A stretch of 64,000 bases of DNA, from the NCBI RefSeq assembly GCF_000023905.1, contig NC_013192.1, positions 62,001 to 126,000 on the forward strand, given 5' to 3'. Origin of the DNA: Leptotrichia buccalis C-1013-b. Its GTDB lineage: Bacteria > Fusobacteriota > Fusobacteriia > Fusobacteriales > Leptotrichiaceae. The notes under the pieces were generated by a model that had not been told where the DNA came from, ran no database searches, and was given only the letters and a program-made list of their open reading frames with translations. The position numbers and the translations under genes are program-made. Positions 4,602-22,636 of this stretch are shown one piece after another (the stretch's first letter is position 1; each line of letters opens with the position of its first letter).

Positions 4602-5072
4602 TTATACTATTTTTTTTATAGTTTCTTCCCAATTTGCAGGATAAATTACATATAAAAATCTTGCAAAGTTAGGAGCACTAAATTTTATTTTTGAACCTTT
4701 AGGAATTAAAATGGCATCTCCTCTATTTCCTGTAACTTTATTTCCATCAACTATGATTTCTAATGTTCCATCTATTACATAGTCTATCTCGTCATAGTTC
4801 AATTCCCAATCAAATGTAGATTCTTCCATTTCCATAACTCCACAGCTTAATCTTCCACTTTCCTCAATTGAAAATACGTCTGTTAGGAATACTTTGTCAT
4901 TTGGATTTCCTGTATCAAATTTTTCTGGTTTTACAGTAGGAATTTTAACAACCCCAACTCCACTTTTATCAATATGTTTTTCAAATCCTCCAACTTTTTT
5001 CTTTAGTTCTTCTTGTACTACTTTTCTAAGTATTTTTTCTAATGTTTCTCTGTCTAAATTTTTTAAATCCAT
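4602..5072 (-). CDS. eutQ: Short EutQ (cupin acetate kinase-like) protein
   Basis: 156 residues with a C-terminal cupin fold region (EESTFDWELNYDEIDYVIDGTLEIIVDG, then GDAILIPKGSKIKFSAPNFARFLYV) as in EutQ. EutQ of enteric bacteria is about 230 residues and works as an acetate kinase in ethanolamine breakdown; this version lacks most of the N-terminal part. ATG 5072 is chosen because GGAGGAAAAAAC precedes it; the longer frame to 5132 runs through that ribosome-binding site. The first 25 residues (LDRETLEKILRKVVQEELKK) form an amphipathic helix resembling a microcompartment encapsulation peptide. Last gene of the eut operon, 25 bases after the broken HAD gene. Confidence 0.78.
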   Translation of the reverse strand: MDLKNLDRETLEKILRKVVQEELKKKVGGFEKHIDKSGVGVVKIPTVKPEKFDTGNPNDKVFLTDVFSIEESGRLSCGVMEMEESTFDWELNYDEIDYVIDGTLEIIVDGNKVTGNRGDAILIPKGSKIKFSAPNFARFLYVIYPANWEETIKKIV

Positions 5073-5097: not shown

Positions 5098-6243
5098 TTA
5101 ATTTTCAGGAACGAATAATCCTGTTTGTTCACTTCTTATTTGAATTAATGCTCTTGGATCTTTTGCTAAGTCGTCAAGTTTTCCTTTTCTTTTCATAAGA
5201 AGTAAAATTTTTGTACCTTTATATTCAGAAAGCATGTTAGCATCTCCTATACTGTCACCTGCAACTAAAATAGGATCTTTTCCACCATGTTTTGGTTTTA
5301 AGTATTTGTTTATTACTTCAACTTTTCCTTTAGTTTGTGTTTGTGGATAACCATGTTTGTATTCAGCTCTATATTTATTTCCATTCATTTCAAGACGCAT
5401 TCCGTAAACGCTGTCAGGACTTAAATTATATCCATAAGATTTGTCACTTGCGAAAACTTTTACTATATCTTCAAGAGAAGCCTAAACTATATACACTTTT
5501 ATACCATTTTTTTCAAATTCATGAAATAAATTAGCTGTTTCAGGCTGAGTTCTTAATCCACTCTTATATTCGTATTTTACTTTTCCAGCTTCACCTGTTA
5601 ACTTGTCACTTGATTCAAGAACATATTTCCCAAGTTTATTTCCTATTCCAAAATCATTAGCTTCTTTTGCCAATTTTTGCACTTCTTCTACAGTCATATT
5701 ATCAAACAAGTAAAGAACCCATGGATAAGCAATATCATGAGAAAAACTTCCACCTATTGCTTCATAAAGAAATGCCAATTTCCCTCTAAAGTCTTTAAAT
5801 TCTTCTGTAGCTTTTATTTTTTTCAAAGACATTTTTTTATCTTTTATATAATTATTATAAAGGAAAGTATATCTTTTATCTAAATCATTTGCTATTTTTG
5901 TAATATTAATAGCTTGCCCCTTCACATTTGAATATTCCTTGTCAAAATTATCTAATGGAATATCTTTTCTAATTGCCTTTGAAAAGGCAGCAGGTGTCAT
6001 TTCAAATTTCAAATTATCTATTTGGTATCTAAACAGATTTTCTTGAGTATCTTGATAAATTGATGTATAATCCCAGTCAAAAACAACATAGTTTCCTTTA
6101 TTCTTGTTTTCATCTATAAGTTTTGATAAGGCTTCCCTATTTTTGGGAACCCACCTTAATTCGTCTAAATTGGCAGCTGATAACACTAATGCCATAAGTA
6201 AAAATACCAATAATCCAATTAATTTTTTCACATTAAATTTCAT
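5098..6243 (-). pseudogene. Secreted HAD-family phosphatase, split by one in-frame TAG
   Basis: One continuous frame of about 381 codons is interrupted only by TAG at 5482-5484. It begins with a signal peptide (KKLIGLLVFLLMALVLSAAN) and carries the HAD motifs: motif I in VVFDWDYTS, motif IV in LVAGDSIGDANML. The amber codon falls in VYIV-stop-ASLEDIVKVF, where motif II of this superfamily has Ser/Thr; a TCG serine codon would need only C to A. Downstream sequence keeps the frame and motifs, so the mutation looks recent. It sits inside the eut operon between eutH and eutQ (gaps of 34 and 25 bases). A periplasmic phosphatase there could release ethanolamine from phosphoethanolamine, but that is inference. 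Suppression or a sequencing error would leave it functional. Confidence 0.85.
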
Positions 6244-6277: not shown

Positions 6278-7375
6278 TTATTTTGCAGATTCTTTTTTGC
6301 AGAATAATACTTTTGCTACAACTATCGCTGTTACTCCTGCCACTAATTTTCCAACTATCATTGGGAAAATCATTTGAGTATACTTTCCACCTTCAAATCC
6401 AGCTGTAAATCCTAAATGGTCTCCAAAGACGAATGCCGCACTTACTGCAAAAGCAATATTCATAACTTTTCCATTCGCATCCATATCTTTTAAAATTCCA
6501 AACATTGGAATATTATTAGCCAAAGTTGCAACTAATCCAGCCGCACCAACTTCATTCATTCCAAGTCCTTTTCCTAATACTTCAAGTGGTTTTCCAAATA
6601 CTTTTGTAATAAAATGTACCAATGGATATGCTCCAGCTAAAACTATTGCAATTCCTCCAACTGTTTCCAATCCTACATCAATTGATTTCATCCCTGGAAT
6701 TACAACAAAACCTGTTAATTTTTGAATAATTGCAGCCACTAACCCTATTGTAATTATAATTACCACAGCTTGACCAAAAACTTCAAATCCTTTTGTCATT
6801 TTTTCAGGCATAAAAATTAAACCTAAAATAATTAATGTAGCAACAATTATTATTGGTATCAAATTCACTAAAATCAATCCTATCGGGAATCCAGACACTA
6901 ATCCACCTGCAAGTACTCCTAACGGTATTGTAGTAATTCCAGCTAAAATTCCTTTTGCCAAAAATGGCTTGTCATCTTTTTCAATAATTCCTAATGCTAC
7001 TGGTATTGTAAACACGATAGTTGGTCCCATCATCGAACCTAATATAAATGCCGCTAATCTTCCAGCTTCTGGATTTTTAGCCATTTCTAATGCAAGTGGA
7101 GCTCCTCCCATATCATTTGCAAGAAGTGTTGTTGCAAACATAGCCGGATCTGCTCCTAATGCTGAATAAATTGGTCCTACTATTGGTGTCAAAAGATTTT
7201 TTAAAACTGGTGCTAAAGAAATAATCCCGACCATGGCAACCGCAAGTGAACCCATAGCCATTATTCCTTCTTCAAATTTTTCACCATATCCCAGTTTATT
7301 TCCAAATATCTTATCTATTCCACCAATTGCCATAAAAATAGTCATAATAATAATTATTATTTTATCTATTCCCAT
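6278..7375 (-). CDS. eutH: Ethanolamine permease EutH
   Basis: Polytopic membrane protein of 365 residues with about ten hydrophobic helices; MGSLAVAMVGIISLAPVL near the start, LANDMGGAPLA and VFGDHLGFTAGF are EutH signatures. EutH imports ethanolamine, mainly important at low pH or low substrate. ATG 7375 is used because GGGAGGAA precedes it; the frame extends 8 codons further but across that site. It is separated from eutL by 263 bases holding a terminator-like hairpin and a second hairpin next to the ribosome-binding site, so eutH may have its own control. Confidence 0.9.
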   Translation of the reverse strand: MGIDKIIIIIMTIFMAIGGIDKIFGNKLGYGEKFEEGIMAMGSLAVAMVGIISLAPVLKNLLTPIVGPIYSALGADPAMFATTLLANDMGGAPLALEMAKNPEAGRLAAFILGSMMGPTIVFTIPVALGIIEKDDKPFLAKGILAGITTIPLGVLAGGLVSGFPIGLILVNLIPIIIVATLIILGLIFMPEKMTKGFEVFGQAVVIIITIGLVAAIIQKLTGFVVIPGMKSIDVGLETVGGIAIVLAGAYPLVHFITKVFGKPLEVLGKGLGMNEVGAAGLVATLANNIPMFGILKDMDANGKVMNIAFAVSAAFVFGDHLGFTAGFEGGKYTQMIFPMIVGKLVAGVTAIVVAKVLFCKKESAK

Positions 7376-7638: not shown

Positions 7639-8292
7639 TTAATAATTTAATGGATTATCTGCTACAAATTTTACAGCTTCAGCGAACGCATCACAAGCAG
7701 CTTTACATGCAGATTGGCTTCCTGTCAAAAGTCCTCCACCAAAGTTTGTTTCTGAAGGCGGTCCATAAAATGCAACCAATCTCACATCAGCAGCTTTTAA
7801 TGCGACATCCAGAGCATACATTGCTTCTAATGGCGGTGCTATTAAGTAAGCCAAAGATTCACCTTCTGGAATTCCTGCAGTTTTTGACAAATAAGTTCCT
7901 GTTCTTGATATGCAATGTGCAAAATATGCGATGCTGTCATCATCATTTGCACTTATAAACGCTGCTTCATTTTCAATAAAATCAACTGCTGCGGCAAGTC
8001 CGCTTTTTACTTCAGCAGGAGTAGGTCCTGATAAAATTCCTATTACTTCTCCAGCCAGTTTTGTATTCGCATTTGCAGCTCCACCGTAGAATGATTTTCC
8101 ATAAGCTACATCCACAACGGCTTTTTTTGTAGCTTCATCCAAAGCAGTATATGTAACATCATCACAATCTGCCGTCAAAATCCCTATACTTCTATGTTCG
8201 TTTGGCAATCCTAATTCTTTAGCCATATCACTATCTACATTCGGAATTAATCTCACAGCTAATACATTAGCTTTTAATCTATCGCCTTTCAT
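7639..8292 (-). CDS. eutL: Microcompartment shell protein EutL (tandem BMC domain)
   Basis: 217 residues, the usual EutL length, with two circularly permuted BMC domains. Recognisable stretches are ANVLAVRLIPNVD at the start, SIGILTADCDDVTYTALDEA, and LVAFYGPPSETNFGGGLLTGS near the C-terminus. EutL trimers tile the shell and have a gated central pore thought to admit larger molecules. It follows eutC by 62 bases and precedes a hairpin. Confidence 0.95.
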   Translation of the reverse strand: MKGDRLKANVLAVRLIPNVDSDMAKELGLPNEHRSIGILTADCDDVTYTALDEATKKAVVDVAYGKSFYGGAANANTKLAGEVIGILSGPTPAEVKSGLAAAVDFIENEAAFISANDDDSIAYFAHCISRTGTYLSKTAGIPEGESLAYLIAPPLEAMYALDVALKAADVRLVAFYGPPSETNFGGGLLTGSQSACKAACDAFAEAVKFVADNPLNY

Positions 8293-8354
8293 TTTTCCTC
8301 CTAAAAATATTAATTTTATTTTTATTCTTAAATTTCAACTATTTAAATTATTTT

Positions 8355-9296
8355 TTATAATTTCAAATCTTGTCCACTTGCTTTTGCGTCAATTATTTTC
8401 TTGATTAATGTTGCAACGTGTGCCCCTGCTTCTGCTGATGGAGTTCCATCCTTATGAATATTTGACACAACTGTTCTTTTTGCTTCAGAAATTCCTGGAC
8501 GAGCCTTGTAAGTAATGTAGGCACTCATACTTTCTGCAGTTGTAAGTCCCGGACGTTCTCCGATTAATATGCACACAACTTCAGCGTTCAAGATTTCTCC
8601 AACATGATCTCCCGCTCCAACTCTTCCATATTTGATAAAGAACGGCGTACCAGTATCAATTCCATATCCTTTAAGCCCATTTAACATTGCAGGTATTATA
8701 TTTTTAGCATTCGCTTCAATCGCAGTTGAACTTAGTCCATCTGACACTACTATTTGCACTGTTGGATTTTTTTTACATTTTTCTTCTATGATTTTTATTC
8801 CTTCTTGCGAAATTTTTCTACCCAAGTCAGGACGTGTAATATATTGGTCTCTGCTTTCACATTCAGTAGTAATTTCAAATAATCCAAGTTCATCTAGAAA
8901 TTCTGTAGGAACGTCATTAAATACAGCATCTTGTGCAGCAGCGTGATCTGCTCTCAATCTTAACAAAACTTCCGTTCTCATTCTTGTTCCAGCTCTTCCG
9001 ATTCCTAGCCTTGCAGATGTTTTTTGTTTTAATTTCATATATTCTTCCCTGTCTTCAGGATTATCCACAAGCATCTGCTCTTTTACATTTATTTTTCCGA
9101 TATCCCTTACTTCTCCATTTACAATGTGTGGATTTTCACGTGGGTTTTCATCTTGGTCATAAGTGGAACTTGTGCTGACAACTGGTGTTTTTTCTTCCAT
9201 AACTGTGACAGGTGTTTCTTTTGCTGGCGTTTCCTCTATTTTTATTTCGCTTATTATTTTTTCAATTACGTCTTTTAGTTCTCTTTCTGATAACAT
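8355..9296 (-). CDS. eutC: Ethanolamine ammonia-lyase small subunit
   Basis: 313 residues; E. coli EutC has 295. Conserved stretches include [26 protein letters not shown] and [15 protein letters not shown], with [18 protein letters not shown] later. With EutB it forms the adenosylcobalamin-dependent lyase that turns ethanolamine into acetaldehyde and ammonia. Residues 1-20 ([18 protein letters not shown]) form an amphipathic helix, followed by a Pro/Glu/Thr-rich linker to about residue 55, a layout typical of cargo-targeting to the shell lumen. Starts 13 bases after eutB; GGGAGGAAAAA before the ATG supports the start. Confidence 0.95.
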
Positions 9297-9309
9297 TGAT
9301 TTTTCCTCC

Positions 9310-10674
9310 CTATTTTAAGAAAATTGAAGCATCTCCGGCTCTATCTGTAAGTTTTCCATCTTTCATTATTCCCATTTTTTCTAACCATTGTTCAAAAGGT
9401 TTTATAGGTCTTCTGTTACATATGTCTCTTAATGTAGCATCATCGTGATAAGAAGATGTTTGATAGTTAAGCATGATGTCGTCTCCCGCAGGAATAGCCA
9501 TAAAGTAGTTACATCCAGCAACTGTCAATAATATTTTCAAGTTTTCAATATCATTTTGATCCGCTTTCATATGGTTAGTGTAGCAAGCGTCAACTCCCAT
9601 TGAAATTCCTGTAAGTTTACCCATAAAATGATCTTCAAGTCCAGCTCTTATTACTTGTTTGCTGTTATAAAGATATTCTGGTCCAATAAATCCAACAACC
9701 GTATTTACAATAAATGGATCAAATTTTTTCGCAAATCCGTAACATCTTGCTTCCATTGTAACCTGATCGCATCCATGGTGTGCATCTGATGATAATTCTG
9801 AACCTTGTCCTGTTTCAAAGTACATTACGTTAGGTCCTGTTGCTGTTCCATGTTTTAATGCCAATTCTCTTGCTTCCTGAATCATATCTCCAGTTATACC
9901 AAATGCTTCATTTCCTTTTTCAGATCCTGCAATACTTTGGAAAATCAAGTCTGTAGGCGCTCCTCTTCTAACTGCTTCCATTTGTGTAGTTACATGAGCC
10001 AATACACATATTTGTGTAGGAATTTCCCATTTAGTTTTTATTTCATGAAATCTGTGCAATACTCTCATAACACTGTCAACACTGTCATCAACTGGGTTTA
10101 ACCCTAACAATGCGTCTCCTTGCCCAAAGCTAAGCCCCTCATACGTAGAAAGCATAATTCCATCTGGATCATCAGTTGTGTGATTAGGCTGCAATCTTGT
10201 TGCAAGTATTCCATCTCCACCTATTTCAGTATTACAGAATTTTTTAATTCTTATTTTGCTTGCTCCTTGAATAAGATCCATGTTACTCATAAGTTTAGCA
10301 ACTGCTGCTACCATTTCACTTGTAAGACCTTTACTAATTCTCTTTATGTCGTCACCACTTGTATGAGAGTCTAAAATCCATTCTCTTAATTCACTTACAG
10401 TCCAGTTTTTTATTTCTCCATAAATTTTTTCATTTACAGCATCCTGTATAATTCTTGTAACTTCATCTTCTTCATAAGGTACTGCAGGATTATTTCTCAA
10501 ATCTCTCAATGTTAATTCAGCCAGTACAGCTTTTGCGGCAACTCTTTCTTCCGCTGTGCTTGCACTTACTCCAGCAAGTTCATCTCCTGATCTAAATTCA
10601 CTTGCTTTATTTTGCACATCTTTTACAGATTTAAATTCATACGTATGTCCAAATAATTTAGTTTTTAATACCAT
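9310..10674 (-). CDS. eutB: Ethanolamine ammonia-lyase large subunit
   Basis: 454 residues, matching the family length (about 453). TIM-barrel catalytic subunit; visible conserved parts are [40 protein letters not shown] and [20 protein letters not shown]. Works with EutC on adenosylcobalamin. Lies between eutA and eutC, the classical order. Confidence 0.97.
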
Positions 10675-10704
10675 TGTTACATGCCACCTCTCTAAATTTT
10701 TTAT

Positions 10705-12135
10705 TTAATAACTGAATACCAATGTTTTTATTACAACAGGCAATACATTTCCATTTCCTAGTGGCGCCCCTATGTCAATATAATCTCCATCTCTCACTTT
10801 TACACTGTCTATGCAAATTATATCGTAACCATCAAGCGCAAGTTTCATACATTGTCCCAATACTTTTGCCATATCGTTTTCAACTATAACGATTACAGGA
10901 TGAGTTTTGTTATGTTTTCTTTTTATAACATCTGAAATTACCGAAGATAGCTCCATTATGTCGGTATATGCCATATTGTGTTTCCCTTTAAAGGCAAGTG
11001 CTACATTTTCAATTTCATTTTCAGAATTAAACCAGTTTAGTTTCCCTTCAATAACCTTTCCTAATTCATTATGTGGCAAACTTTCATCCGATTCTGACAG
11101 TTTCAATACAGGAATATTTTTTATTGGAAAAATTCCTTCAGTATAAGTTATTGTACTTCCACTTATTTCTGTCGTATGGCTTCCTGCACCAACTACTGTC
11201 GCTCCAATTGTTTCACTTAATTTTAGAGGCTCTATATTTAACTCTTTTAGGACTTTTACCAGTTCCTCTCCAAGTACTACCCCTATATCGTTATATTTGT
11301 ACAAGTCCTTTTCAGTTTTTCCATAAACAAAATCTGCAACTCCTCCAGTAAATGAATAATGCTCAATGTTGTTATTATGTTTTCTGAAATCTTTATATGT
11401 TACTATTTTATGGTACAAATCTGTTTTTGGCAAAAGTTCAATACTTTCAAGAACAAGCTGTGCCATTCTTCTCGTTATTTTTCTCAAATCCTGCTCGTTT
11501 ATTTTTCTGCCTAATTCCAATTTTATATTTACATCATCAGCAATATCATACATTTTTTTGAAAATATAACGTGTATTCCCGTTTTCATCAAATTTTATAA
11601 GTCTTCCTCCGATGTCAAGACAAGTGGTATCTTCCACTTCCCCTCTATTGAAAACTACAATGTTTGTAGTTCCTCCTCCGATGTCAAAGTTTACGATACT
11701 TGTATTTTTCTGTTCGGAATATCCATAAGCTCCCGAACCTTTTCCAGCAATAATGCTTTCCAAATCAGGTCCTGCTGTTGCAACGACGAAATCTCCTGCC
11801 ATTCCACTAAGAATTTGCAGTACTTCCTTCGCATTTTCCTTTCTTGCAGTATCTCCTGTTATTATTACAGCTCCTGTCGAAACATCCTTGTATTGTATAT
11901 TGGCTTTTCTGTATTCAGATTCTATTATTTCCTTAACTTTTTTTGCGTCTATTTTTGTTTCATTTTCTAATGGAGTAATATAAATTTCGCTTCTATATAC
12001 AACTTCTTTTCCTATTATTTTAAGCTGAGGCGCTGTAAATGCAGTTCCTCTGTTTTCTATATAAATTTTTGAGAAAATAAGCTGCGTAGTAGAAGTTCCA
12101 ATATCTATTCCCACACTTAATATTTCTTCTATCAT
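10705..12135 (-). CDS. eutA: Ethanolamine ammonia-lyase reactivating factor EutA
   Basis: 476 residues with an actin-like ATPase fold: the phosphate loops [17 protein letters not shown] and [15 protein letters not shown], then [11 protein letters not shown]. EutA swaps damaged cobalamin out of EutBC at the cost of ATP. ATG 12135 is preferred because AAAGGGG lies 9 bases upstream; a longer frame adds eight codons. Located between eutW and eutB. Confidence 0.93.
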
Positions 12136-12180
12136 TATGCTAGACCCCTTTGTCTTCATTGATATTTAAATACTCACAAA

Positions 12181-13584
12181 TCAATTTTCAAATCCAAAAC
12201 TTATTTCAGTTCCTTTTTTTCCAGTTTTTATATCCAGATTTCCATAAAGTTTTTCCTTTACAAGACTTTTTACTATTCGTAGTCCAATGCTTCCTTTTTC
12301 AAAGTCCTTTTCATCCATTCCAATTCCATCATCACTTATGGAAATATGGGATTTCATCTCTCCTCTTTTCACTTTAATTGTTATATGTCCTTTGTCCCGC
12401 TTCTTAAAAGCATGCTTTATACAATTTTCCACAAGTTCATTCACTATAAGGGCAATAGTTGTAGCCTTATCTGAATTAATTTCAAAGTTATCTCCTATTA
12501 CATCTATTTTCAATTTCAGATGCCCTTCCAGATTTTCTCTCACCGAATTTTTCAGAATTTTATTTATGACTTCCTTTATTTTCAGCTCATCAAGTCCATT
12601 TTGAGCAAGCAGCTCGTGAGTTACCGAAATACTCAAAATCCTGTTAATACTATCGCTAAATGCAGCCTTTACAGCTTTATCCTCTGTTTTTCTTGCCTGT
12701 ATCCTAAGCAAACTTGCTATTGTCTGCAAATTATTTTTCACTCTATGATGTATTTCCTTGATTACAACTGATTTTAAGACAAGTTCTTTTTCCTTGATTT
12801 TAATTTCGGTAATGTCCTTAATAAACAAAACTACATTTTTAACATTTTTTGTTTCCTTTACCAAGATATATTCCAGACTTAAAACCATATTTGAGATATT
12901 TATATCGGATTTTTCTTTGACTTGTCCACTTAGCACATCTTCAAATTCAACATTGTCAATTACAATATTGTCAAACTTTTCTCCAAGGAAAAAATCCTTA
13001 TAGCCTATCTTCCTGTACACATATTTCGCTCTAGAATTAGCATATATGCACACGCCTTCTTCATTAAAAATTATAATTCCATCATTAATGTAGTCAATTA
13101 TTTTTCGCTCCCGCAGCATTCCAACGGAACTCATAAGAATGTCATCAGTTGCATTGTTTAAAAAACTTAGCTCCTTATTGATATTTTCTTCATTCATGCC
13201 TTCCTCAACTATAAGAACGGCTATCACTTCTCCATTTGTTCTATCACTTCTTATAGGCACTACATTTTGTGTAACGCTTTTATTTTCTTGCGTTAATGCT
13301 TTATAATCTCTTGACGGATGTCCAGTTTCTAGTGTTCTTAATACTGCTGGCTCATTTTTTCTATAAGCAAATTTCCCTACAACGCTTTGGGTGTAACTTG
13401 ATCCTTTTCTTGGATTTGCTTCAGCAACCACAATCGCCGTATCCCTATTTTCCGTCATACAGTCAATAAATACGTCCGCCTTTAGCAGCTTGCTCATAAC
13501 AGGCAGCCCTTCACATATTTTTTCCAGCTTTTCAATATCTTTATTTGAAAGGTTTGTATATTGTTTACATATCGTTCTAAGCAT
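12181..13584 (-). CDS. eutW: Ethanolamine-sensing histidine kinase EutW
   Basis: About 467 residues. The N-terminal 140 residues form a sensor region of the kind found in EutW/PdtaS kinases, a PAS-like segment follows (INDGIIIFNEEGVCIYANSRA), then a HisKA_2 phosphoacceptor box (EIHHRVKNNLQTIASLL) and the ATP-binding N box (NELVENCIKHAF) and G box (SDDGIGMDEKD). No membrane segment, so it should sense cytoplasmic ethanolamine. The gene overlaps the 3' end of eutV. Two ATGs lie six bases apart; 13584 has the better spaced GGAG, 13590 is the alternative. Confidence 0.9.
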   Translation of the reverse strand: MLRTICKQYTNLSNKDIEKLEKICEGLPVMSKLLKADVFIDCMTENRDTAIVVAEANPRKGSSYTQSVVGKFAYRKNEPAVLRTLETGHPSRDYKALTQENKSVTQNVVPIRSDRTNGEVIAVLIVEEGMNEENINKELSFLNNATDDILMSSVGMLRERKIIDYINDGIIIFNEEGVCIYANSRAKYVYRKIGYKDFFLGEKFDNIVIDNVEFEDVLSGQVKEKSDINISNMVLSLEYILVKETKNVKNVVLFIKDITEIKIKEKELVLKSVVIKEIHHRVKNNLQTIASLLRIQARKTEDKAVKAAFSDSINRILSISVTHELLAQNGLDELKIKEVINKILKNSVRENLEGHLKLKIDVIGDNFEINSDKATTIALIVNELVENCIKHAFKKRDKGHITIKVKRGEMKSHISISDDGIGMDEKDFEKGSIGLRIVKSLVKEKLYGNLDIKTGKKGTEISFGFEN

Positions 13585-14155
13585 TTTCATCTCCAGATAA
13601 AATTATAATATCAGATATTTTTCCCATATCGCATCTTTTATTCATGCTAAGCGTCCTTATATACTCGTATGCCTCCTTTTCCGTAAAATCTCTTGTTTTC
13701 ATCAGAATACTCTTGGCAATATCTATTTTTTTTCTGTCTTCCAGTTTTTGACTCGTTTTTAAATATTTTTTTTCCAGTTCCTCGAATTCTTCTTGCTTGT
13801 TAAATATAATTTCAAGATTTGGAATAAAAGATTTTTCATCAATAGGCTTTACAATATATCCTATTATTCCTATATTTTTAGCTTCTTCTATAAAATCCTT
13901 ACTGGAATAGGCTGTAAGTAAAACAACACCTCTAGACAATTTCTCCTTTGTTATTACTTTCGCTGCTTTCAGTCCGTCCAGTATAGGCATTTTAATATCC
14001 ATTATTACAAAATCTGGTTTATATTTTCTGCTTTGTTCTATTGCATCAAATCCATCTCCTGCCTCAGCAACTACATCGTAATTTGCTTCCCTAAGTATCT
14101 CGCAAATATCCATTCTTGTTATCGGTTCATCGTCTACAACTATTATTTTTCTCAT
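13577..14155 (-). CDS. eutV: ANTAR-domain response regulator EutV
   Basis: 192 residues. Receiver domain: acidic pair in IVVDDEPITRMD, phosphoacceptor Asp in FVIMDIKMPILDG, Thr in LLTAYS and Lys in YIVKPID. A coiled-coil linker follows, then a C-terminal ANTAR domain (DIAKSILMKTRDFTEKEAYEYIR). EutV binds RNA hairpins in eut leaders and prevents a terminator from forming when phosphorylated by EutW. A candidate target is seen at 22101-22156. Confidence 0.93.
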   Translation of the reverse strand: MRKIIVVDDEPITRMDICEILREANYDVVAEAGDGFDAIEQSRKYKPDFVIMDIKMPILDGLKAAKVITKEKLSRGVVLLTAYSSKDFIEEAKNIGIIGYIVKPIDEKSFIPNLEIIFNKQEEFEELEKKYLKTSQKLEDRKKIDIAKSILMKTRDFTEKEAYEYIRTLSMNKRCDMGKISDIIILSGDENA

Positions 14156-14176
14156 CTTTTTCTCTTTTCCTAAAAT

Positions 14177-15295
14177 TTAATATAAATCTGTCAATAACTG
14201 CTTCATTTCAATTCTGCTAAATCTTCGTGGATTTTCTCCTGTACACATATCATTTTCTATTTGATCAATTATGCCTTCCATTTCATCAAAATATTGTTCT
14301 TTCGGGATTCCAAGTTCACTTAAACTGTTTGGTATTCCCATTTTAGCTGCTCTCATTTTAATAGCCTTTGCCAGTATCTCCACACCTTCTACATCTTCTT
14401 TAGGAGAAAATCCTAACGCTTCCACAATTTCCCTGTAATATTTTGCCGCATTTTTATTTCGTGCATTAAATTGTATAACTTCTGACATGATTACAGCATT
14501 TAATCTTCCATGCGGTTTATGAAATCTTGCTCCCAGAGAATGTGCTATGCTGTGATTTATTCCCAATCCTGCATTACTAAATGCAACTCCCGCCATACAA
14601 GAGGCAATCTGTAAATTAATTCTTTCTTTTTCCAGTTGCGGATTTTCAAAATTACTTACCAAGTCAGCAAATACTGTCTTTATCGCTCCAATGGCAAATG
14701 TATTTGTAAATAAGTTTCTAGATTTTGAAACATATGCTTCTATAGCATGTGTCAAAACATCCATTCCTGTGTCCGCAATTATTGATGGTGAAAGAGTTTT
14801 TATAAATTCTGGATTTAAGATTGCTATATCGGGCAGCATTTCGCTATCGCTTAGCGGTATTTTTTTATCTTTCGTTGTAACAACTGCATAAGATGTCACT
14901 TCTGAACCTGTTCCGCTCGTTGTTGGAATAGCAATGAATTTTGGCTTTTTATTTTGTCCCATTGCCCTTTTTATCTGATTTGTAAAATAAATCATTGATT
15001 TGCAGGCATCTATTGGTGAACCTCCTCCAAGTGCTATTATGCAGTCGGGATCATGTGCACTTAATTCCAGCATTCCCTTTATAATTTCCTCATCAGTGGG
15101 ATCAGGCTTCACATCCGAATATACTTTGGCTTCTATTCCTCGCGATTTTAAGATATTTGTCACTTTATTTATGACTTTCAGTTTTACCATATTTTCATCT
15201 GTAACTAAAAATACTTTTTCCATTTCCAGTGTTCTTAATATATCCAAAGAATTAGCGCCATAATGAATATCCGGTTTTATTTGAAATAACCCCAT
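14177..15295 (-). CDS. eutG: Iron-containing alcohol dehydrogenase EutG
   Basis: 372 residues of the Fe-dependent group III ADH family: nucleotide-binding GGGSPIDACKSM, and the metal-ligand regions GMDVLTHAIEAYVS and GLGINHSIAHSLGARFHKPHG. It reduces acetaldehyde to ethanol and regenerates NAD+ inside the compartment. ATG 15295 follows AAGGAAG by 8 bases; a GTG at 15304 would lie on top of that site. Between the 98-residue gene and eutV. Confidence 0.88.
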   Translation of the reverse strand: MGLFQIKPDIHYGANSLDILRTLEMEKVFLVTDENMVKLKVINKVTNILKSRGIEAKVYSDVKPDPTDEEIIKGMLELSAHDPDCIIALGGGSPIDACKSMIYFTNQIKRAMGQNKKPKFIAIPTTSGTGSEVTSYAVVTTKDKKIPLSDSEMLPDIAILNPEFIKTLSPSIIADTGMDVLTHAIEAYVSKSRNLFTNTFAIGAIKTVFADLVSNFENPQLEKERINLQIASCMAGVAFSNAGLGINHSIAHSLGARFHKPHGRLNAVIMSEVIQFNARNKNAAKYYREIVEALGFSPKEDVEGVEILAKAIKMRAAKMGIPNSLSELGIPKEQYFDEMEGIIDQIENDMCTGENPRRFSRIEMKQLLTDLY

Positions 15296-15315
15296 TGACT
15301 CCACTTCCTTTCTTT

Positions 15316-15612
15316 TTATAGTAATTCTTTTAATTTGGATAATATTTTTTGGACTGTTTCAGAATCCGTTATTTTAAATTCTTTTGTAATTATGTCAATA
15401 ACTTTTTTCTCAAAATTCTGACAGTCTTTTTTTATTTCATTTTTCATTTTACTTTCTGATTCACAGCAACATTTTTCATATTTTACTCCAATTCCCTTAT
15501 CCCTTATTATGTCCTTTGCTCCTGGAGTAATAATCATATCAGCTTGAATCACAAGTTCATTTTCTTGAACATATTCAAAAAGATTTTTTACCGTAATCAA
15601 TCTTTTTCTCAT
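15316..15612 (-). CDS. 98-residue eut-operon protein resembling the EutQ/EutT N-terminal domain
   Basis: The first 45 residues share a pattern with the start of EutT in this operon and with EutQ N-termini: KRLITVKNLFEY, then MIITPGAKDIIRDKGIGV (EutT here has DILTPSAREYLNVKKIDY). A cysteine cluster (KCCCESES) and a later Cys follow, and the protein ends in an amphipathic helix (DSETVQKILSKLKELL) like an encapsulation peptide. Fits tightly between eutN and eutG (4 and 20 bases). Not a known named Eut protein to me. It could be the detached N-terminal part of EutQ, which is missing from eutQ at the operon end. Confidence 0.7.
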   Translation of the reverse strand: MRKRLITVKNLFEYVQENELVIQADMIITPGAKDIIRDKGIGVKYEKCCCESESKMKNEIKKDCQNFEKKVIDIITKEFKITDSETVQKILSKLKELL

Positions 15613-15616
15613 TTTT

Positions 15617-15886
15617 TTACTCCTTTTCCGATTCCAAACTGTCTATTATTCCTACGATAGTCGCATCTACTGGGGTTTCAGCATCGAATATATGTCTTGC
15701 AGAACTTCCTGTAACAATTATCACTTTGTCGTCTTGTCCAGCACCAATGTAATCTGCTGCCACCATTTTTCTGCTTCCACGTCCTTCATCTGTCCCTTCC
15801 ACTTCAACTACCATTAGTTTTAGTCCTTTCAGTTTTTCATCCTTCCTTGTTGCCCAGACATTATCCACAACTTTTCCAATTAACAT
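15617..15886 (-). CDS. eutN: Microcompartment vertex protein EutN
   Basis: 89 residues starting MLIGKVVDNVWATRKDEKL, with the conserved VAADYIGAGQDDKVIIVTGSSAR centre typical of EutN/CcmL pentamers that cap shell vertices. The start at 15886 follows AAAGAAGG; the frame extends ten codons further into the upstream gene. One base separates it from the next gene upstream. Confidence 0.93.
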   Translation of the reverse strand: MLIGKVVDNVWATRKDEKLKGLKLMVVEVEGTDEGRGSRKMVAADYIGAGQDDKVIIVTGSSARHIFDAETPVDATIVGIIDSLESEKE

Positions 15887-15887
15887 A

Positions 15888-16532
15888 TTATTGCCTTCTT
15901 TCATAGCATAATTCAATACTATTTTCTTTTATATAATCCATCGCAAGGGAAGTTATTTTAGATTTTGCATCAACTTCAAGCGTCTGATTTTTTAATTTCA
16001 GCTTTCTGAGCCTTCTTTCTGTTACCAAGCCTTTCAAATAAACTTTTTCTTTCGTACAAAAAACATTTTTAACTTCCGTTCTTTTTACAACCTTTATTCC
16101 AAATTCCCTGACTTTATCAAGATACCCGTCATAAAGATTGATTAATGCAGCAGGTTTGGTATATTTTTTATATTCCAGCCCTTCTTCCACAAGTACAACT
16201 TCCCCATCGTTAAAAAGAAATTCCGTTATAACACTTTTTCTCCCTTGTGAAAGCTCAATCAGCTCATTTATCCCAAGAGTTGACACTACAAGTCTTTTTT
16301 TATTTTCACATTGTCCGATTTCTTCCCAAGTGCTGTCTAATTTTATGTTTTCCATAAATGATGCTTCTTTTTTCAATTCATCCTTCAAAACTTCATCATT
16401 TCCCAAAAAAGCTGTTACTACTGATTTTTTAGAAATAATCTCGTTATTTTCAGATAATTTTTGATTTTCTCTTTTGGCAATTTCCTTTAACACTTCCCTT
16501 GCAAGCACTTCTATCAATTTCTGAGTATCCAT
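15888..16532 (-). CDS. Conserved ethanolamine-utilisation protein (TIGR02536-like)
   Basis: 214 residues, lying between pduL and eutN as in other Gram-positive and fusobacterial eut operons. I recognise it as the uncharacterised eut family (TIGR02536) by place, size and features such as TKPAALINLYDGYLDKV and GLVTERRLRKLK. Residues 1-22 (DTQKLIEVLAREVLKEIAKR) make an amphipathic helix like an encapsulation peptide, so the protein may be luminal. No catalytic motif is evident. Function unknown. Confidence 0.7.
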   Translation of the reverse strand: MDTQKLIEVLAREVLKEIAKRENQKLSENNEIISKKSVVTAFLGNDEVLKDELKKEASFMENIKLDSTWEEIGQCENKKRLVVSTLGINELIELSQGRKSVITEFLFNDGEVVLVEEGLEYKKYTKPAALINLYDGYLDKVREFGIKVVKRTEVKNVFCTKEKVYLKGLVTERRLRKLKLKNQTLEVDAKSKITSLAMDYIKENSIELCYERRQ

Positions 16533-16551
16533 TTTATCTCCTTACAACGCC

Positions 16552-17187
16552 TTATTTTTCAATACTTCCAGTCATTCCTGAAGTATACCCGCAGGAATTG
16601 GCTTCATCAAAGTCTATGTGCATGCTCAGTCTAAAACTGTCCCTTACTCTTATTAAAACATCATCAAATATTAACGGCCTGTCACTGTGAATTTTCACTT
16701 TTACAGTTTCGCCGTCTTTTACAGAAAGTCTTTTTGCATCTTCATTTGTCATATGAATATGTCTTTTGGCAACAATAACACCTTTATCCAGCTGTACATA
16801 TTTATCTCCTACACCTAGCAGTATTCCCGGCGTTCCTTCAATTTTTCCACTTTCCCTTATCACTCCCTTGACTCCTATTTGACGGCAGTCAGTAAGCGAT
16901 AATTCCACTTGCGAAAAACTTCTGCAAGGTCCTAATACTACAACATTGGAAAATTCTCCTTTTGGACCAATCACTCTGACTCTTTCCTTTGCCGCAAATT
17001 GTCCTGGCTGTGATAAATCCTTTGCTGGAGTAAGTTCATAACCTTTTCCAAAAAGTGCTTCCACATGCTCCTTCGTAAGATGTACATGACGCCCTGAAGC
17101 CTCAACCATAAAGGTATCATCCTTTTCTGCACCTAGAATTTCCTGTAATTTTTCTCTTATTATTCTCTCCAATTCATTTCTGTCCAT
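16552..17187 (-). CDS. pduL: Phosphotransacylase PduL-type (EutD function)
   Basis: 211 residues with the two zinc-binding beta-barrel halves of PduL: ASGRHVHLTKEHV near the start and VAKRHIHMTNEDA in the second half. It converts acetyl-CoA to acetyl-phosphate and recycles CoA inside the shell, replacing the unrelated EutD of enterics. The first 19 residues (RNELERIIREKLQEILG) are a typical N-terminal encapsulation helix. Follows eutT by 21 bases. Confidence 0.93.
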   Translation of the reverse strand: MDRNELERIIREKLQEILGAEKDDTFMVEASGRHVHLTKEHVEALFGKGYELTPAKDLSQPGQFAAKERVRVIGPKGEFSNVVVLGPCRSFSQVELSLTDCRQIGVKGVIRESGKIEGTPGILLGVGDKYVQLDKGVIVAKRHIHMTNEDAKRLSVKDGETVKVKIHSDRPLIFDDVLIRVRDSFRLSMHIDFDEANSCGYTSGMTGSIEK

Positions 17188-17208
17188 AGCATCTCCCGAA
17201 ATTTGAGA

Positions 17209-17991
17209 TTATTTATAATCTCCATTATTTGCTTTTAGCATCATCAAGTACAATATACTGCTCAAACGGTTCAATGCTTTCAGCATATCCAGCCTTTCCA
17301 CTTTTCCTTCCTTGTAAAAAGCTTCCACCGCAGCAAGCTCACATTCCCTTGAAAGAGCTCTCAGATAATTTAAATCTATAACTGATTCATCATAATCTAT
17401 ATTTATTTCAAACAAATGCCCCGTCTTAAAATATTTTACTGTATTATGAGTTATGTCTTTTAATGTATCTATATCGTATCCTAGAACATTCCTTTCCTGA
17501 AATTCCATATCTGTCATTTCACTTATGAATAAATCTCTTACAAATCTGTATGTCTGTGCAAAATCACTTTCCAGCTTTTTATTTTTTTCATATTTTTTCC
17601 AATATTTTATTATTTCAGCCTGTAAAATATCAAATTTTCCTCTTAAAATAATTCTCTTATGATTTTTTACAACTAGATTGTCTCCAAAAAGCTGAGTCAT
17701 ATATTCAGGTTTTTTGTCGTAAATTGCTCCTGTAAAATAATCTCTGTATTGTCTTTTTGGAGAAATTTTTTCTTCAGATTTCTTGACTTGAGAAACTTCA
17801 GATTTTTTTTCATCGTTTTCTTTTTTCTCTATAGCTTTTTCCTGAGATTTTTTAATTCGATAATCAATTTTTTTCACATTTAAATATTCTCTGGCTGATG
17901 GTGTAAGGATGTCTTTTTCAGTTATTCGTACTTTTTCAAGATGCCCTTCCTTTTCTAATTTTCTAAGCATTCCTTCTGTTATAACAGGCAT
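17209..17991 (-). CDS. eutT: Cobalamin adenosyltransferase EutT
   Basis: 260 residues. N-terminus VITEGMLRK...ILTPSAREYL and the C-terminal LKALNRLSSILYLMML helix are EutT hallmarks. It makes adenosylcobalamin for EutBC. The cysteine motif (HX11CCX2C) that binds metal in enteric EutT is absent: the only cysteine is in SRECELAAVEAF. A metal-independent EutT class lacking this motif has been described in Listeria and relatives; this looks like the same class. A Lys/Glu/Ser-rich linker (about residues 45-85) separates the two parts. Confidence 0.88.
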   Translation of the reverse strand: MPVITEGMLRKLEKEGHLEKVRITEKDILTPSAREYLNVKKIDYRIKKSQEKAIEKKENDEKKSEVSQVKKSEEKISPKRQYRDYFTGAIYDKKPEYMTQLFGDNLVVKNHKRIILRGKFDILQAEIIKYWKKYEKNKKLESDFAQTYRFVRDLFISEMTDMEFQERNVLGYDIDTLKDITHNTVKYFKTGHLFEINIDYDESVIDLNYLRALSRECELAAVEAFYKEGKVERLDMLKALNRLSSILYLMMLKANNGDYK

Positions 17992-18008: not shown

Positions 18009-19487
18009 CTATTTTTTATAAATTCCATCCAATACTTGTCTTATGATACTTTCTATATCATTTTCGCTAACTTTTGAATTACTAGTGTCAGTATTTAATT
18101 CACATGCACAAGTACAAACACCTTCATTTTTCAATTCTTCCAGCTCTTTTGTCCCATAAGCTACTCTTCTAATATTTATTAGATTTAGAGGTCCTATATT
18201 GTCAGAAGTTGCACTTCCTCCAACTGTTCCACATCCTAATGTGAATGCAGGTATAAGATTTGTCGTAGCTCCTACTCCTCCAAGTGCCGCAGGTGTGTTT
18301 ACAAGCAATCTTGAAACTGGTTTTTTCAATGAAAATTCTCTTATGATATTTTCGTTGTTTGTGTGCATTGACATTGTATGCCCGATTCCTTCGTTTTGAA
18401 GAATTTCTATACATTTTTCACATGCTTTTTCCCAAGTTTCTTCTGTATAAAATCCTAGTACTGGACACAATTTTTCCCTTGAATAAGGATTGAAGTGTGA
18501 AACTTCTGTTTCTTCAGAAATTAGAACTTTTGTAGTTACAGGAACTGTTATTCCCGCCATTGCAGCTACATATAAGGCTGTTTTTCCTACTATTTTTGGA
18601 TTCATTGTGTTGTTGGCTCTCATTAGAATTTTTCCAACTTTTTCTCTTTCATCCTTGTTCAAGAAATATGCGCCTTGTCGTTTCAGTTCATCTGCAACTT
18701 GATGTTTTATTACTTCTTCTGTAACAATTGACTGTTCTGACGCACAAATTACTCCATTGTCAAAAGTTTTACTGTCTATTATTCTTTTAACTGCTTTTCT
18801 AATGTCTGCACTTCTTTCAATAAATGAAGGTCCATTTCCAGGTCCTACTCCTATAGCAGGTGTTCCAGAACTGTAAGCAGCCTTTACCATTGCTTCTCCA
18901 CCTGTTGCCAAAATCAATGAAGTCTTTTTATGTTTCATAAGCTCTTGTGTAGCTTGTAATGTAGGTGTTTTTATAACTCCAATTAATCCTTTTGGAGCAC
19001 CTTTTCTTTCAGCAGCTCTTATTAAATATTCTGCGGTTTTTAATATAGAGTCTTTCGCATTTGGATGCGGACTTACAATTACCGCATTTCCTGCTTTTAA
19101 TGAAATCATTATTTTGTATATTGTTGTAGACGTAGGGTTTGTAGAAGGAATTAATGCTGCGATTATTCCCATTGGAACCCCTATTTCTGTTATTCTTTTT
19201 TCTTTATCGTCGTTAATGATTCCTCTTGTTTTTAAATCTTTTATAGTTTCATAAACACCTACTGACGCTAGTCTATTTTTTAGCACCTTATCTTCCCAAC
19301 GTCCAAATCCTGTTTCTTCATTAGCCAATTTTGCCAGTTCTACTTCGTGTTTTTGAGCTTCTTCACAGATTTCCTTAACTATTTCATCAATCTGGCTTTG
19401 AGAAAATTGGCTGTATTCTTCAAAAGCTTTACTCGCAGCAGCAAGCAAATCTCTTACTTCCTGTATCGATTGCAAATCTTTATCCAT
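18009..19487 (-). CDS. eutE: CoA-acylating acetaldehyde dehydrogenase EutE
   Basis: 492 residues, aldehyde dehydrogenase superfamily. NAD/CoA-binding region with IALIPSTNPTSTTIYK and VSPHPNAKDS; catalytic cysteine in SKTFDNGVICASEQS. Turns acetaldehyde plus CoA into acetyl-CoA. The C-terminus (ENDIESIIRQVLDGIYKK) after a Cys/Ser-rich linker is an encapsulation-type helix, placed C-terminally here. Located between eutM and eutT. Confidence 0.95.
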   Translation of the reverse strand: MDKDLQSIQEVRDLLAAASKAFEEYSQFSQSQIDEIVKEICEEAQKHEVELAKLANEETGFGRWEDKVLKNRLASVGVYETIKDLKTRGIINDDKEKRITEIGVPMGIIAALIPSTNPTSTTIYKIMISLKAGNAVIVSPHPNAKDSILKTAEYLIRAAERKGAPKGLIGVIKTPTLQATQELMKHKKTSLILATGGEAMVKAAYSSGTPAIGVGPGNGPSFIERSADIRKAVKRIIDSKTFDNGVICASEQSIVTEEVIKHQVADELKRQGAYFLNKDEREKVGKILMRANNTMNPKIVGKTALYVAAMAGITVPVTTKVLISEETEVSHFNPYSREKLCPVLGFYTEETWEKACEKCIEILQNEGIGHTMSMHTNNENIIREFSLKKPVSRLLVNTPAALGGVGATTNLIPAFTLGCGTVGGSATSDNIGPLNLINIRRVAYGTKELEELKNEGVCTCACELNTDTSNSKVSENDIESIIRQVLDGIYKK

Positions 19488-19527
19488 AATCTTTCCTTTC
19501 TGTAAATAACTACTGTTTTAGTTATTC

Positions 19528-19833
19528 CTATTCTGTTACAGCTTCTTCAACTGTTTTTGCTTTAGGCAATATAGCTTCAATTTCAGTATGAGGTCTTGGA
19601 ATTACATGAATTGAAATCAATTCTCCTACTCTTTCTGCAGCAGCAGCTCCCGCATCAGTTGCAGCTTTCACCGCTCCCACATCTCCTCTTACCAATACTG
19701 TCACTAATCCGCCACCAACATGCTCTTTCCCAATCAATGTTACATTGGCTGCTTTTACCATCGCATCTGCAGCTTCTATTGCCGCTACTAATCCTTTAGT
19801 TTCTATCATTCCTAACGCATTTAATGTTGCCAT
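19528..19833 (-). CDS. eutM: Microcompartment shell protein EutM, copy 3 of the operon
   Basis: 101-residue single BMC domain ([39 protein letters not shown]). Nearly identical to the two copies at 21384 and 21727 over the first 80 residues, but its tail is longer ([20 protein letters not shown]). Hexamers form the flat shell facets. The start codon lies inside the 3' end of the eutK-like gene (13-base overlap), and the AAGGAGGAAG site is within that gene's last codons, implying coupled translation. Confidence 0.96.
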
Positions 19834-20555
19834 TGTGCTTCCTCCTTATTATTTTTTATCAAAATTTCTATCAGTTTTTTCTTAGGCATTGTTTTTATTT
19901 GATTCCAAGTGTAGCCTAATTTGCAGCTATTTACCATTTTTTTTAAATCAATTACTTTCATACCCTGATATTGCTTTTTTAATTTTTCTGCTTCATCATC
20001 TTCTTTTTCAACTTCTATTTCGAAAACTTCTATTTTTTCCTGAATATCATTATTTTGATCTAATTTTTCAGCTGGATTTTCAACTTTTTCATAAACTTCA
20101 GCTATCTCTGTAACTTTTTCATTTATTTCTTTATTTTGTTCTTCGTCAAAATTTTCATTTTTACTTTCATTTATTATTTCTTCTGTTATTTCTTCGGTTG
20201 AAATTTTTTCCGTTGCTTTTTTCTCAATAGTTGTATCTTTAACAACTGATTTGTTTTCAATTTTTTGTTTTTTCTCCTTATTTCCTAAATCACTTATCAA
20301 GATTTTTTTTGTTTCCGAATCAATTCTTGCGATAACATTACTGCTCAGGAAATTACCAAGTCTTTTTGCACTTTCCGTAGCGGCATCAACTGCTGCTGTT
20401 ACAGCCGACACATCTCCTGCTACTTCAATCGTTACAATTCCGCCTTTTACATAATAGCAGTTCATAAGAGTTACATTAGCGGCTTTCAATGCGGCATCCG
20501 CTGCTTCTATTGCAGTTACAAGACCTAGTGTTTCTACGTATCCGTATGAATCCAT
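19821..20555 (-). CDS. EutK-like shell protein: BMC domain, charged linker, new C-terminal domain
   Basis: 244 residues. Residues 1-95 are a BMC domain ([40 protein letters not shown]). Residues 96-195 are a Glu/Lys-rich, probably disordered linker. The last 45 residues ([17 protein letters not shown]... [11 protein letters not shown]) look like a small helical Rho-N/SAP-type fold. Enteric EutK also joins a BMC domain to a C-terminal nucleic-acid-binding winged helix, but the sequence here is different. Lies between eutP and eutM. May tether RNA/DNA or cargo to the shell; that is inference. Confidence 0.8.
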
Positions 20556-20569
20556 CTATTTATCACCTT

Positions 20570-21004
20570 CTAACTCTCGGAATCTTCTTCCAGATATTTG
20601 ACAAGTTCCTCAATTCCTTTATTTTCATAAGCACTTACAATAAAAACTTTTTCCGCTCCCGCCATTTCCAATATTTCTTTTGCTTTTTCAGGATTTCCAC
20701 CTAAATCAGTTTTGGTTACAATTCCAATTACAGGCTTTGAAAAGGCTGTTGCAAAGTTTGGGGGAAATATATTACGCTCTTCATCGCAGGCTTGCACCAT
20801 TCCTACAACATCACAGTCATAGGAACTTACAATTAATGCTTTGTAAAGCATTCTATTTTCCATATATTCACCGGGAGTGTCAAGTATATCATTTGAATAT
20901 GTAAGCATTTGAGTTTTTTCATATTCTATGTCCAATCCATGTATTCTTTGAGTCAATGTTGTTTTACCACACATGGACTTTCCAATTAAAAGTATTTTTT
21001 TCAA
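20570..21004 (-). CDS. eutP: EutP/PduV-family small GTPase-like protein
   Basis: 144 residues. P-loop GKSMCGKTTL and the G3-like ILDTPGEYMENRMLY, then VTKTDLGG as the base-recognition motif. EutP family proteins have been linked to acetate kinase activity (EutP) and compartment positioning (PduV). Sits between eutS and the eutK-like gene with 2 and 14-base spacing. Confidence 0.9.
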   Translation of the reverse strand: MKKILLIGKSMCGKTTLTQRIHGLDIEYEKTQMLTYSNDILDTPGEYMENRMLYKALIVSSYDCDVVGMVQACDEERNIFPPNFATAFSKPVIGIVTKTDLGGNPEKAKEILEMAGAEKVFIVSAYENKGIEELVKYLEEDSES

Positions 21005-21006
21005 TT

Positions 21007-21357
21007 TTATGACCTCGTTATTTGAGTTATACTAAATCTTAGTACATTTTGAAAGTATGAAACTACTTCATTTACAGCAGCTTCTATACTTCCAACATCT
21101 CCACTAATAACAACAGACCCAGTAAATCTATCGACAAATCCTATCTCCACTTCAGCACTCTTTGTAGCCAAATCTGCCGCAATTATTGCCGCTTCTCCTG
21201 GAGTGATTGTTAAAATTCCGATGGCATTTACCTTGTTTTCATGAAGCCCTATTTTTTTTGATAAATCTCTTTGAGGATTTGCAATTATATGAGCCAGTGT
21301 CAATTGCCTACCGGGCACATATTCCTGTATCATTCTCTGTTTTTTTTCTTCTTCCAT
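21007..21357 (-). CDS. eutS: Microcompartment shell protein EutS
   Basis: 116 residues, permuted BMC domain: [17 protein letters not shown] at the N-terminus is diagnostic for EutS/PduU, followed by [20 protein letters not shown]. EutS hexamers are bent and may shape shell edges. Follows eutM copy 2 by 26 bases and precedes eutP by 2. Confidence 0.96.
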
Positions 21358-21383
21358 TTGACAAATCCTTTCTAAAATTTTTT

Positions 21384-21659
21384 CTATCTAGGCAATATTG
21401 TTTCAACTTCTGAATGTGGACGCGGAATTACATGAATTGAAATCAGTTCTCCTACTCTTTCAGCAGCAGCAGCCCCTGCATCAGTTGCAGCCTTAACAGC
21501 TCCTACATCTCCTCTTACAAGCACTGTTACAAGTCCTCCACCTACGTGTTCTTTTCCAATCAATGTCACATTCGCAGCTTTTACCATCGCATCAGCTGCT
21601 TCTATTGCAGCTACTAATCCTTTAGTTTCTATCATTCCTAGTGCATTTAATGTTGCCAT
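21384..21659 (-). CDS. eutM: Microcompartment shell protein EutM, copy 2
   Basis: 91 residues; differs from copy 1 by a single Val/Ile change near the C-terminus (VGELI versus VGELV). The start at ATG 21659 follows GGGAGGTAAGAG; a longer frame with 11 extra codons crosses that site. The 67-base spacer to copy 1 fits a tandem duplication. Confidence 0.96.
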
Positions 21660-21726
21660 AGCTCTTACCTCCCAAAATTTTTTAATTTTCAAATTCTTTA
21701 ATAATAACTATTTTTTGTTTTTAAAA

Positions 21727-22002
21727 TTATCTTGGTAAAATAGTTTCAACTTCTGAATGTGGACGTGGAATTACATGAATTGAAACTAGTTCTCCCACTC
21801 TTTCAGCAGCAGCAGCCCCTGCATCAGTTGCAGCCTTAACAGCCCCTACATCTCCTCTTACAAGCACTGTTACAAGTCCTCCACCTACGTGTTCTTTCCC
21901 AATTAATGTCACATTCGCAGCTTTTACCATTGCATCCGCTGCTTCTATTGCAGCTACTAATCCTTTTGTTTCTATCATTCCTAACGCATTTAATGTTGCC
22001 AT
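21727..22002 (-). CDS. eutM: Microcompartment shell protein EutM, copy 1 (first gene of eut operon)
   Basis: 91 residues, canonical BMC hexamer protein, first gene after the eut leader. AGGAGGAAAGAT precedes the ATG. Together with copies 2 and 3 it would give three gene doses of the major facet protein. Confidence 0.96.
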
Positions 22003-22053
22003 ATCTTTCCTCCTGAAATTATTTTTTATTTGACAAATAATTTAACTTTAAAT

Positions 22054-22419: not shown

Positions 22420-22447
22420 TTGACAAATATAAAAAAGAGAGTGTACT
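22420..22447 (+). promoter_or_regulatory. Promoter of cobalamin riboswitch copy 1
   Basis: TTGACA, 16-base spacer, TGTACT. The intact copy at 27554 has TATACT in the same place, so the -10 box here has changed A to G and is probably weaker. Confidence 0.6.
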
Positions 22448-22454
22448 AATAGTA

Positions 22455-22606
22455 AAGAATTATAGGTGTTTTACAAACTTAATAAGGAAATCGGTTAGAA
22501 TCCGATACAGCCCCCACTACTGTGAAACTGACGAAAGTACACAAAACCACTGAAATATTTTGGGAAGGGTATAAGTAGGATGAAGTTAGTCAGGAGACTT
22601 GCCTAA
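22455..22606 (+). ncRNA. Cobalamin riboswitch, copy 1 (orphaned)
   Basis: Contains the B12-box set: TATAGGTG, AATCGGTTAGAATCCGATACAGCCCCC, ACTACTGTGA, GAAGTTAGTCAGGAGACTTGCC. Strongly similar to the copy at 27593. Here the aptamer runs almost directly into the cbiM start (TTAGAGAAGGAGAGAAA), without the ~170-base segment with terminator that follows copy 2, and the cbiM behind it is truncated. It lies divergently from the eut promoter. Confidence 0.93.
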
Positions 22607-22636
22607 GGTTAAATTAAATTTAGAGAAGGAGAGAAA

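What the first reader, a model, noticed from the sequence alone, without database searches (positions are those of the whole stretch)
5482..5484. Single amber codon splits a secreted HAD phosphatase inside the eut operon
Everything else of a 381-codon frame is intact, including signal peptide, motif I (DWDYT) and motif IV (GDSIGDAN). The TAG sits exactly at the motif II serine position (VYIV-stop-ASLED). A TCG to TAG change is one substitution. It is either a very recent loss, a suppressed or recoded codon, or a sequence error; all are informative for a gene in a metabolic operon.
Basis: partly seen in the sequence, partly recalled or inferred. Interest (0 to 1): 0.7.

Follow-up and report, generated by a model that had tools for sequence, protein, structure and literature searches.

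The report
Amber-broken phosphatase in ethanolamine operon
In the mouth bacterium Leptotrichia buccalis, a gene for a secreted phosphatase that probably frees ethanolamine for the ethanolamine-degrading operon around it has recently been broken by an ordinary premature stop codon at an active-site position; most related bacteria keep the gene whole.

Summary
In detail: window 5482-5484 reads TAG on the - strand, codon 254 of an otherwise open 381-codon frame between eutH and eutQ. All 23 relatives aligned have Ser or Thr there. The five intact Leptotrichia orthologues use TCA, so TAG differs at two adjacent bases; 'TCG, one substitution' is not what relatives show. The position equals catalytic Ser166 of Pseudomonas phosphatase PchP. 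Recoding is unsupported: none of 46 tRNAs reads UAG, RF1 is intact, PylS is absent. Codons after the stop still look constrained, so the loss is recent or, less likely, a sequence error. A second Leptotrichia genome lost the gene independently by deletion. The intact gene occurs only in eut+ genomes, mostly inside the operon. It is probably a periplasmic phosphoethanolamine phosphatase, not the phosphate acetyltransferase proposed in PMC6620236, since most of these operons also carry EutD/PduL. Verdict: ordinary recent nonsense pseudogene; modest interest.

The parts
5098..6243 (-). PchP-like secreted HAD phosphatase gene, 381 codons plus TAA, interrupted at codon 254
5482..5484 (-). in-frame TAG at the motif II serine position (codon 254; equals PchP Ser166)
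6175..6243 (-). predicted Sec signal peptide (about codons 1-23, no lipobox)
   Evidence: read from sequence; hydrophobic core scored
6064..6078 (-). HAD motif I DWDYT (D56, D58, T60 = PchP D31, D33, T35)
5323..5325 (-). K307, aligned with PchP K242 (lost from the truncated product)
5242..5256 (-). acidic motif with D330 and D334 = PchP D262, D267 (lost from the truncated product)
4602..5072 (-). eutQ-like gene, last in the operon, starts about 25 bases after the phosphatase stop codon
6278..7375 (-). eutH ethanolamine permease, immediately upstream of the phosphatase
7639..17991 (-). eutL, eutC, eutB, eutA, sensor kinase, response regulator, Fe-alcohol dehydrogenase, small ORF, eutN, TIGR02536 protein, eutD (PduL type), eutT, all open frames
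18009..22003 (-). eutE, shell-protein genes (three eutM-like and one longer BMC protein), eutP, eutS
   Evidence: eutM-like genes read from sequence

Best explanation
The frame is a recently formed nonsense pseudogene in this L. buccalis strain. The intact gene, kept in related species, encodes a periplasmic HAD phosphatase of the PchP type. Its most likely role (inferred, about 65%) is to cleave phosphoethanolamine outside the cytoplasm so that ethanolamine enters through EutH, the neighbouring permease, and is broken down by the Eut microcompartment. TAG is read as an ordinary stop by normal release factor 1. The 253-residue product keeps motif I but lacks the motif II serine, the lysine and both acidic aspartates, so it should be inactive. 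Shown: the stop, conservation of Ser/Thr there, intact relatives, no UAG-reading tRNA, linkage to eut. Inferred: substrate, inactivity, periplasmic location.
For: Stop present and the only one in the frame. Ser/Thr in 23/23 relatives, TCA in 5/5 Leptotrichia. Sequence matches to 4gxt (E 5e-49) and PchP 4as2 (E 8e-16), with codon 254 aligned to Ser166; mutagenesis shows Ser166, Lys242, Asp262 and Asp267 matter, and PchP cleaves phosphorylethanolamine (PMC3170909). 46 tRNAs, none with a CTA anticodon; 46 + 15 rRNAs = the 61 RNA genes of the genome paper. RF1 intact, no PylS above cut-off. Downstream codons: 4 private silent and at most 1 private amino-acid change, against 77% non-silent expected if neutral (P = 0.012). 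Close homologue in 17 genomes, all among the 35 of 96 with eutB (P = 1.5e-9; genus level 2e-5), in varying positions within the operon. No second copy in the genome. 86 pseudogenes reported for this genome, so broken genes are common.
Against: Only one assembly of the species was available, so the base call was not checked on reads. Two adjacent base differences are less expected than one. The frame carries no second lesion. The recency test rests on few changes. Substrate was not tested, and three genomes of one genus (g9) have the gene away from eut.
Confidence: 0.82

Rival explanations
1. The TAG is an error in the 2009 Sanger/454 genome sequence and the gene is intact in the strain.
For: Rest of the frame is flawless and still looks constrained. 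Only one assembly seen. The difference can also be written as one missing and one extra base (GTTTCAGC versus GTTTAGGC).
Against: Finished genome, 9.7x Sanger plus 42x 454, stated error below 1 in 100,000 (PMC3035221). Two errors within three bases are needed, or one error on top of a silent change.
Confidence: 0.1
2. UAG is suppressed or recoded so that full-length enzyme is made.
For: Downstream coding sequence remains conserved.
Against: No tRNA with a CTA anticodon among 46; RF1 intact; no PylS; TAG ends 8 of 43 ORFs of 150+ codons in the window, this one included; relatives have plain Ser/Thr codons. Near-cognate readthrough would put Gln, Tyr or Lys at a catalytic serine (general knowledge).
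Confidence: 0.03
3. The two halves are separate, functional products (split enzyme or re-initiation at the ATG at 5400).
For: A 100-codon ORF with an ATG start follows the stop.
Against: No relative is split. The second ORF starts 28 codons after the stop, so the motif II residue belongs to neither half.
Confidence: 0.02
4. The HAD protein is a phosphate acetyltransferase of the Eut pathway, as predicted for Fusobacteria in PMC6620236, so the stop would impair making acetyl phosphate (a rival for the function of the gene, not for the stop).
For: Present in eut clusters of Fusobacteria lacking other phosphotransacetylase genes according to that paper; G028 here has two HAD copies and no PduL match nearby.
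Against: All 17 homologues from eut+ genomes have an N-terminal hydrophobic segment typical of secretion, whereas acetyl-CoA is cytoplasmic. L. buccalis and 10 of 13 other HAD+ eut clusters also show EutD of the PduL type in the stretch read. All PchP phosphatase residues are conserved.
Confidence: 0.07

Closest known systems
Phosphorylcholine phosphatase PchP of Pseudomonas aeruginosa (PDB 4as2, 4as3)
   Same: HAD superfamily, secreted, the same seven catalytic positions in intact orthologues, glutamate 43 (here E68) near the alkylammonium site
   Different: About 50 residues longer, low overall identity, Gln67 where PchP has Glu42; encoded in eut operons rather than under choline control; substrate untested
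4gxt, protein of unknown function from Anaerococcus prevotii
   Same: Closest solved structure by sequence (E 5e-49) and by fold search (E 9.5e-15), same motif II VSAS
   Different: No assigned function; its genome context was not examined
HAD protein of fusobacterial eut clusters (PMC6620236, PMC11796344)
   Same: PF12710 protein in Fusobacteria eut loci, reported 28% identical to PchP
   Different: Named there a predicted phosphate acetyltransferase or simply a hydrolase; orthology to the F. nucleatum gene itself was not tested
Ordinary nonsense pseudogenes of bacterial genomes
   Same: Single premature stop, remaining frame intact, relatives whole
   Different: Nothing beyond the stop falling on an active-site codon

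Membership tests
PchP-like HAD phosphatase | Sequence relation to PchP or 4gxt | tested here: met
   phmmer E 7.6e-16 and 5.1e-49; Pfam HAD PF12710 above cut-off
PchP-like HAD phosphatase | Catalytic residues D31, D33, T35, S166, K242, D262, D267 present | tested here: not met
   All present in the intact orthologues; in L. buccalis S166 is a stop and the three residues after it are not translated. The gene belongs to the family; this allele is a broken member
PchP-like HAD phosphatase | Secretion signal | tested here: met
   Hydrophobic N-terminal segment in L. buccalis and all homologues from eut+ genomes; not a dedicated signal-peptide predictor
PchP-like HAD phosphatase | Hydrolysis of phosphocholine or phosphoethanolamine | not testable with these tools
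   needs an enzyme assay
Recoded or suppressed UAG codon | tRNA able to read UAG | tested here: not met
   46 tRNAs, none with CTA
Recoded or suppressed UAG codon | Loss or change of RF1, or pyrrolysine machinery | tested here: not met
   RF1 intact, PylS below cut-off
Nonsense pseudogene | Close relatives carry an uninterrupted frame with a sense codon at the site | tested here: met
Nonsense pseudogene | Stop confirmed in the organism rather than in one assembly | not testable with these tools
   no reads or second isolate available
Eut phosphate acetyltransferase (proposed in PMC6620236) | Found where no other phosphotransacetylase is in the cluster | tested here: not met
   EutD/PduL lies in the same operon in L. 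buccalis (NF040837 above cut-off) and in most HAD+ operons

The most novel reading that the evidence does not exclude
The UAG is read through at a useful rate, inserting an acceptable residue at the catalytic position, so that L. buccalis makes a small, regulated amount of active phosphatase without any dedicated suppressor tRNA.
Probability: 0.02. Interest if true: 0.65.

Novelty: new member of a known kind. Interest (0 to 1): 0.27.

Why it matters
By itself a recent nonsense mutation is common. The useful part is what surrounds it: a secreted PchP-like phosphatase is tied to eut across Fusobacteriales, which suggests these bacteria can feed on phosphoethanolamine as well as free ethanolamine, and argues against a published acetyltransferase assignment. 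Two Leptotrichia (one by nonsense, one by deletion) have lost it while keeping eut, giving natural comparison pairs to test that idea.

Tried and rejected
The '1 TAG' reported inside prfA looked at first like a broken RF1, which would have supported readthrough; reading the locus showed that the stop lies just upstream of the ATG and RF1 is an intact 360-residue frame (close species show a TAA at the same kind of place). PylS hits were weak and below cut-off, as in most of the control genomes. The AlphaFold model (10 sequences, mean pLDDT 59) was too poor for active-site reasoning; its fold search only confirmed 4gxt. Neighbours of the non-eut homologues in Tepidanaerobacter and in one g9 genome gave no functional hint. 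An exact search of viral contigs for the TAG-bearing site found nothing, as expected.

Full report
What is there. Window 5482-5484 reads CTA on the + strand, TAG on the - strand, at codon 254 of a frame that runs 6243 to 5098 and is otherwise open for 381 codons. The frame starts with a Sec-type signal peptide and has HAD motif I DWDYT and the acidic motif GDSIGD. The window belongs to a complete single-contig genome of 2,465,610 bases, the size published for Leptotrichia buccalis C-1013-b (PMC3035221). It is the only match of its kind in that genome.

Surroundings. The gene is the next-to-last cistron of a full eut operon on the - strand, between eutH (permease) and eutQ, with eutL, C, B, A, a two-component system, an alcohol dehydrogenase, eutN, eutD (PduL type), eutT, eutE, shell proteins, eutP and eutS upstream, all open.

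Relatives. Of 13 Leptotrichia genomes, seven have eutB and eutH. Five of them have the phosphatase intact at 90-97% identity, L. buccalis has it with the stop, and the seventh, G010, has only a 92-base remnant of the 3' end between eutH and eutQ, 79% identical, so it lost the gene by deletion. Position 254 is Ser or Thr in all 23 aligned relatives, and TCA in all five Leptotrichia orthologues.

What the site is. phmmer against solved structures gives 4gxt (E 5e-49) and PchP 4as2 (E 8e-16), and in the second alignment codon 254 falls on Ser166. In PchP, Asp31, Asp33, Thr35, Ser166, Lys242, Asp262 and Asp267 were shown important by mutagenesis, and the enzyme releases ethanolamine from phosphorylethanolamine (PMC3170909). 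The stop removes Ser166 and the three catalytic residues after it.

Is UAG read here? ARAGORN on all 46 Rfam tRNA matches gives no CTA anticodon; 46 tRNAs plus 15 rRNAs equal the 61 RNA genes in the genome paper. RF1 is intact; the reported TAG in it lies just before its start codon. PylS is absent. TAG is an ordinary terminator in the window, 8 of 43 long ORFs. Nothing supports recoding.

How old is the loss? On the L. buccalis branch, codons after the stop show four private silent changes and at most one private amino-acid change, against an expected 77% amino-acid-changing under neutrality (P = 0.012). The count of five rests on my sorting of ambiguous codons: at 266, 315 and 317 the L. buccalis residue equals that of the outgroup, so those changes are placed on the other branch. 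Numbers are small, but they fit constraint up to recently. A sequence error is the main remaining alternative; the published error rate is below 1 in 100,000 with 51.7x coverage, and two nearby errors (or one error plus a silent change) would be needed. The same paper reports 86 pseudogenes, so another broken gene is unremarkable.

What the intact gene probably does. In 96 genomes of the order, 17 have a close homologue and all 17 are among the 35 with eutB (P = 1.5e-9; by genus P = 2e-5; genomes are not independent). In 13 genomes other than L. buccalis it lies in the eut cluster, next to different neighbours (eutH/eutQ, alcohol dehydrogenase, eutM/eutE, eutE/eutT), which suggests a functional tie rather than one inherited order; three genomes of genus g9 carry it elsewhere. 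All 17 have an N-terminal hydrophobic segment typical of secretion. Together with the PchP residues this points to a periplasmic phosphoethanolamine phosphatase feeding EutH. A 2019 survey proposed that the fusobacterial eut HAD protein is a phosphate acetyltransferase (PMC6620236); the presence of EutD/PduL in the same operon and the secretion signal argue against that, at least for these species. Substrate remains untested.

Verdict. Observation confirmed; reading partly supported. A recent nonsense pseudogene, with a sequence error as the main rival; the eut-linked phosphatase and its repeated loss are the more useful points.

Noticed in passing
L082:6921-7010 (G010:C2): 92-base remnant of the phosphatase 3' end between eutH and eutQ in another Leptotrichia genome with an otherwise present eut operon: an independent deletion of the same gene.
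   Followed up: yes
window 6278-7375 and the eutH genes of G001 (L085) and G003 (L083): eutH of G001 and G003 is only 80-81% identical to L. buccalis EutH while their phosphatase next door is 97% identical and EutB 98-99%; suggests replacement of eutH by recombination in one lineage.
   Followed up: no
L090:8737-10997 (G028:C3): Tandem pair of eut-linked phosphatase genes (77% and about 50% identical to the L. buccalis frame) in a genome whose eut cluster shows no PduL match.
   Followed up: no
window 22447-22620: Cobalamin riboswitch on the + strand just beyond the start of the eut operon (Rfam RF00174, 92.9 bits).
   Followed up: partly
window 19521-19833, 21387-21661, 21730-22003: Three nearly alike EutM-type shell-protein genes in one eut operon (read from sequence).
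   Followed up: no
L038-L042: Shorter (about 318 residues) PchP-like proteins without a secretion signal in other members of the family that lack eutB; a possible cytoplasmic branch.
   Followed up: partly
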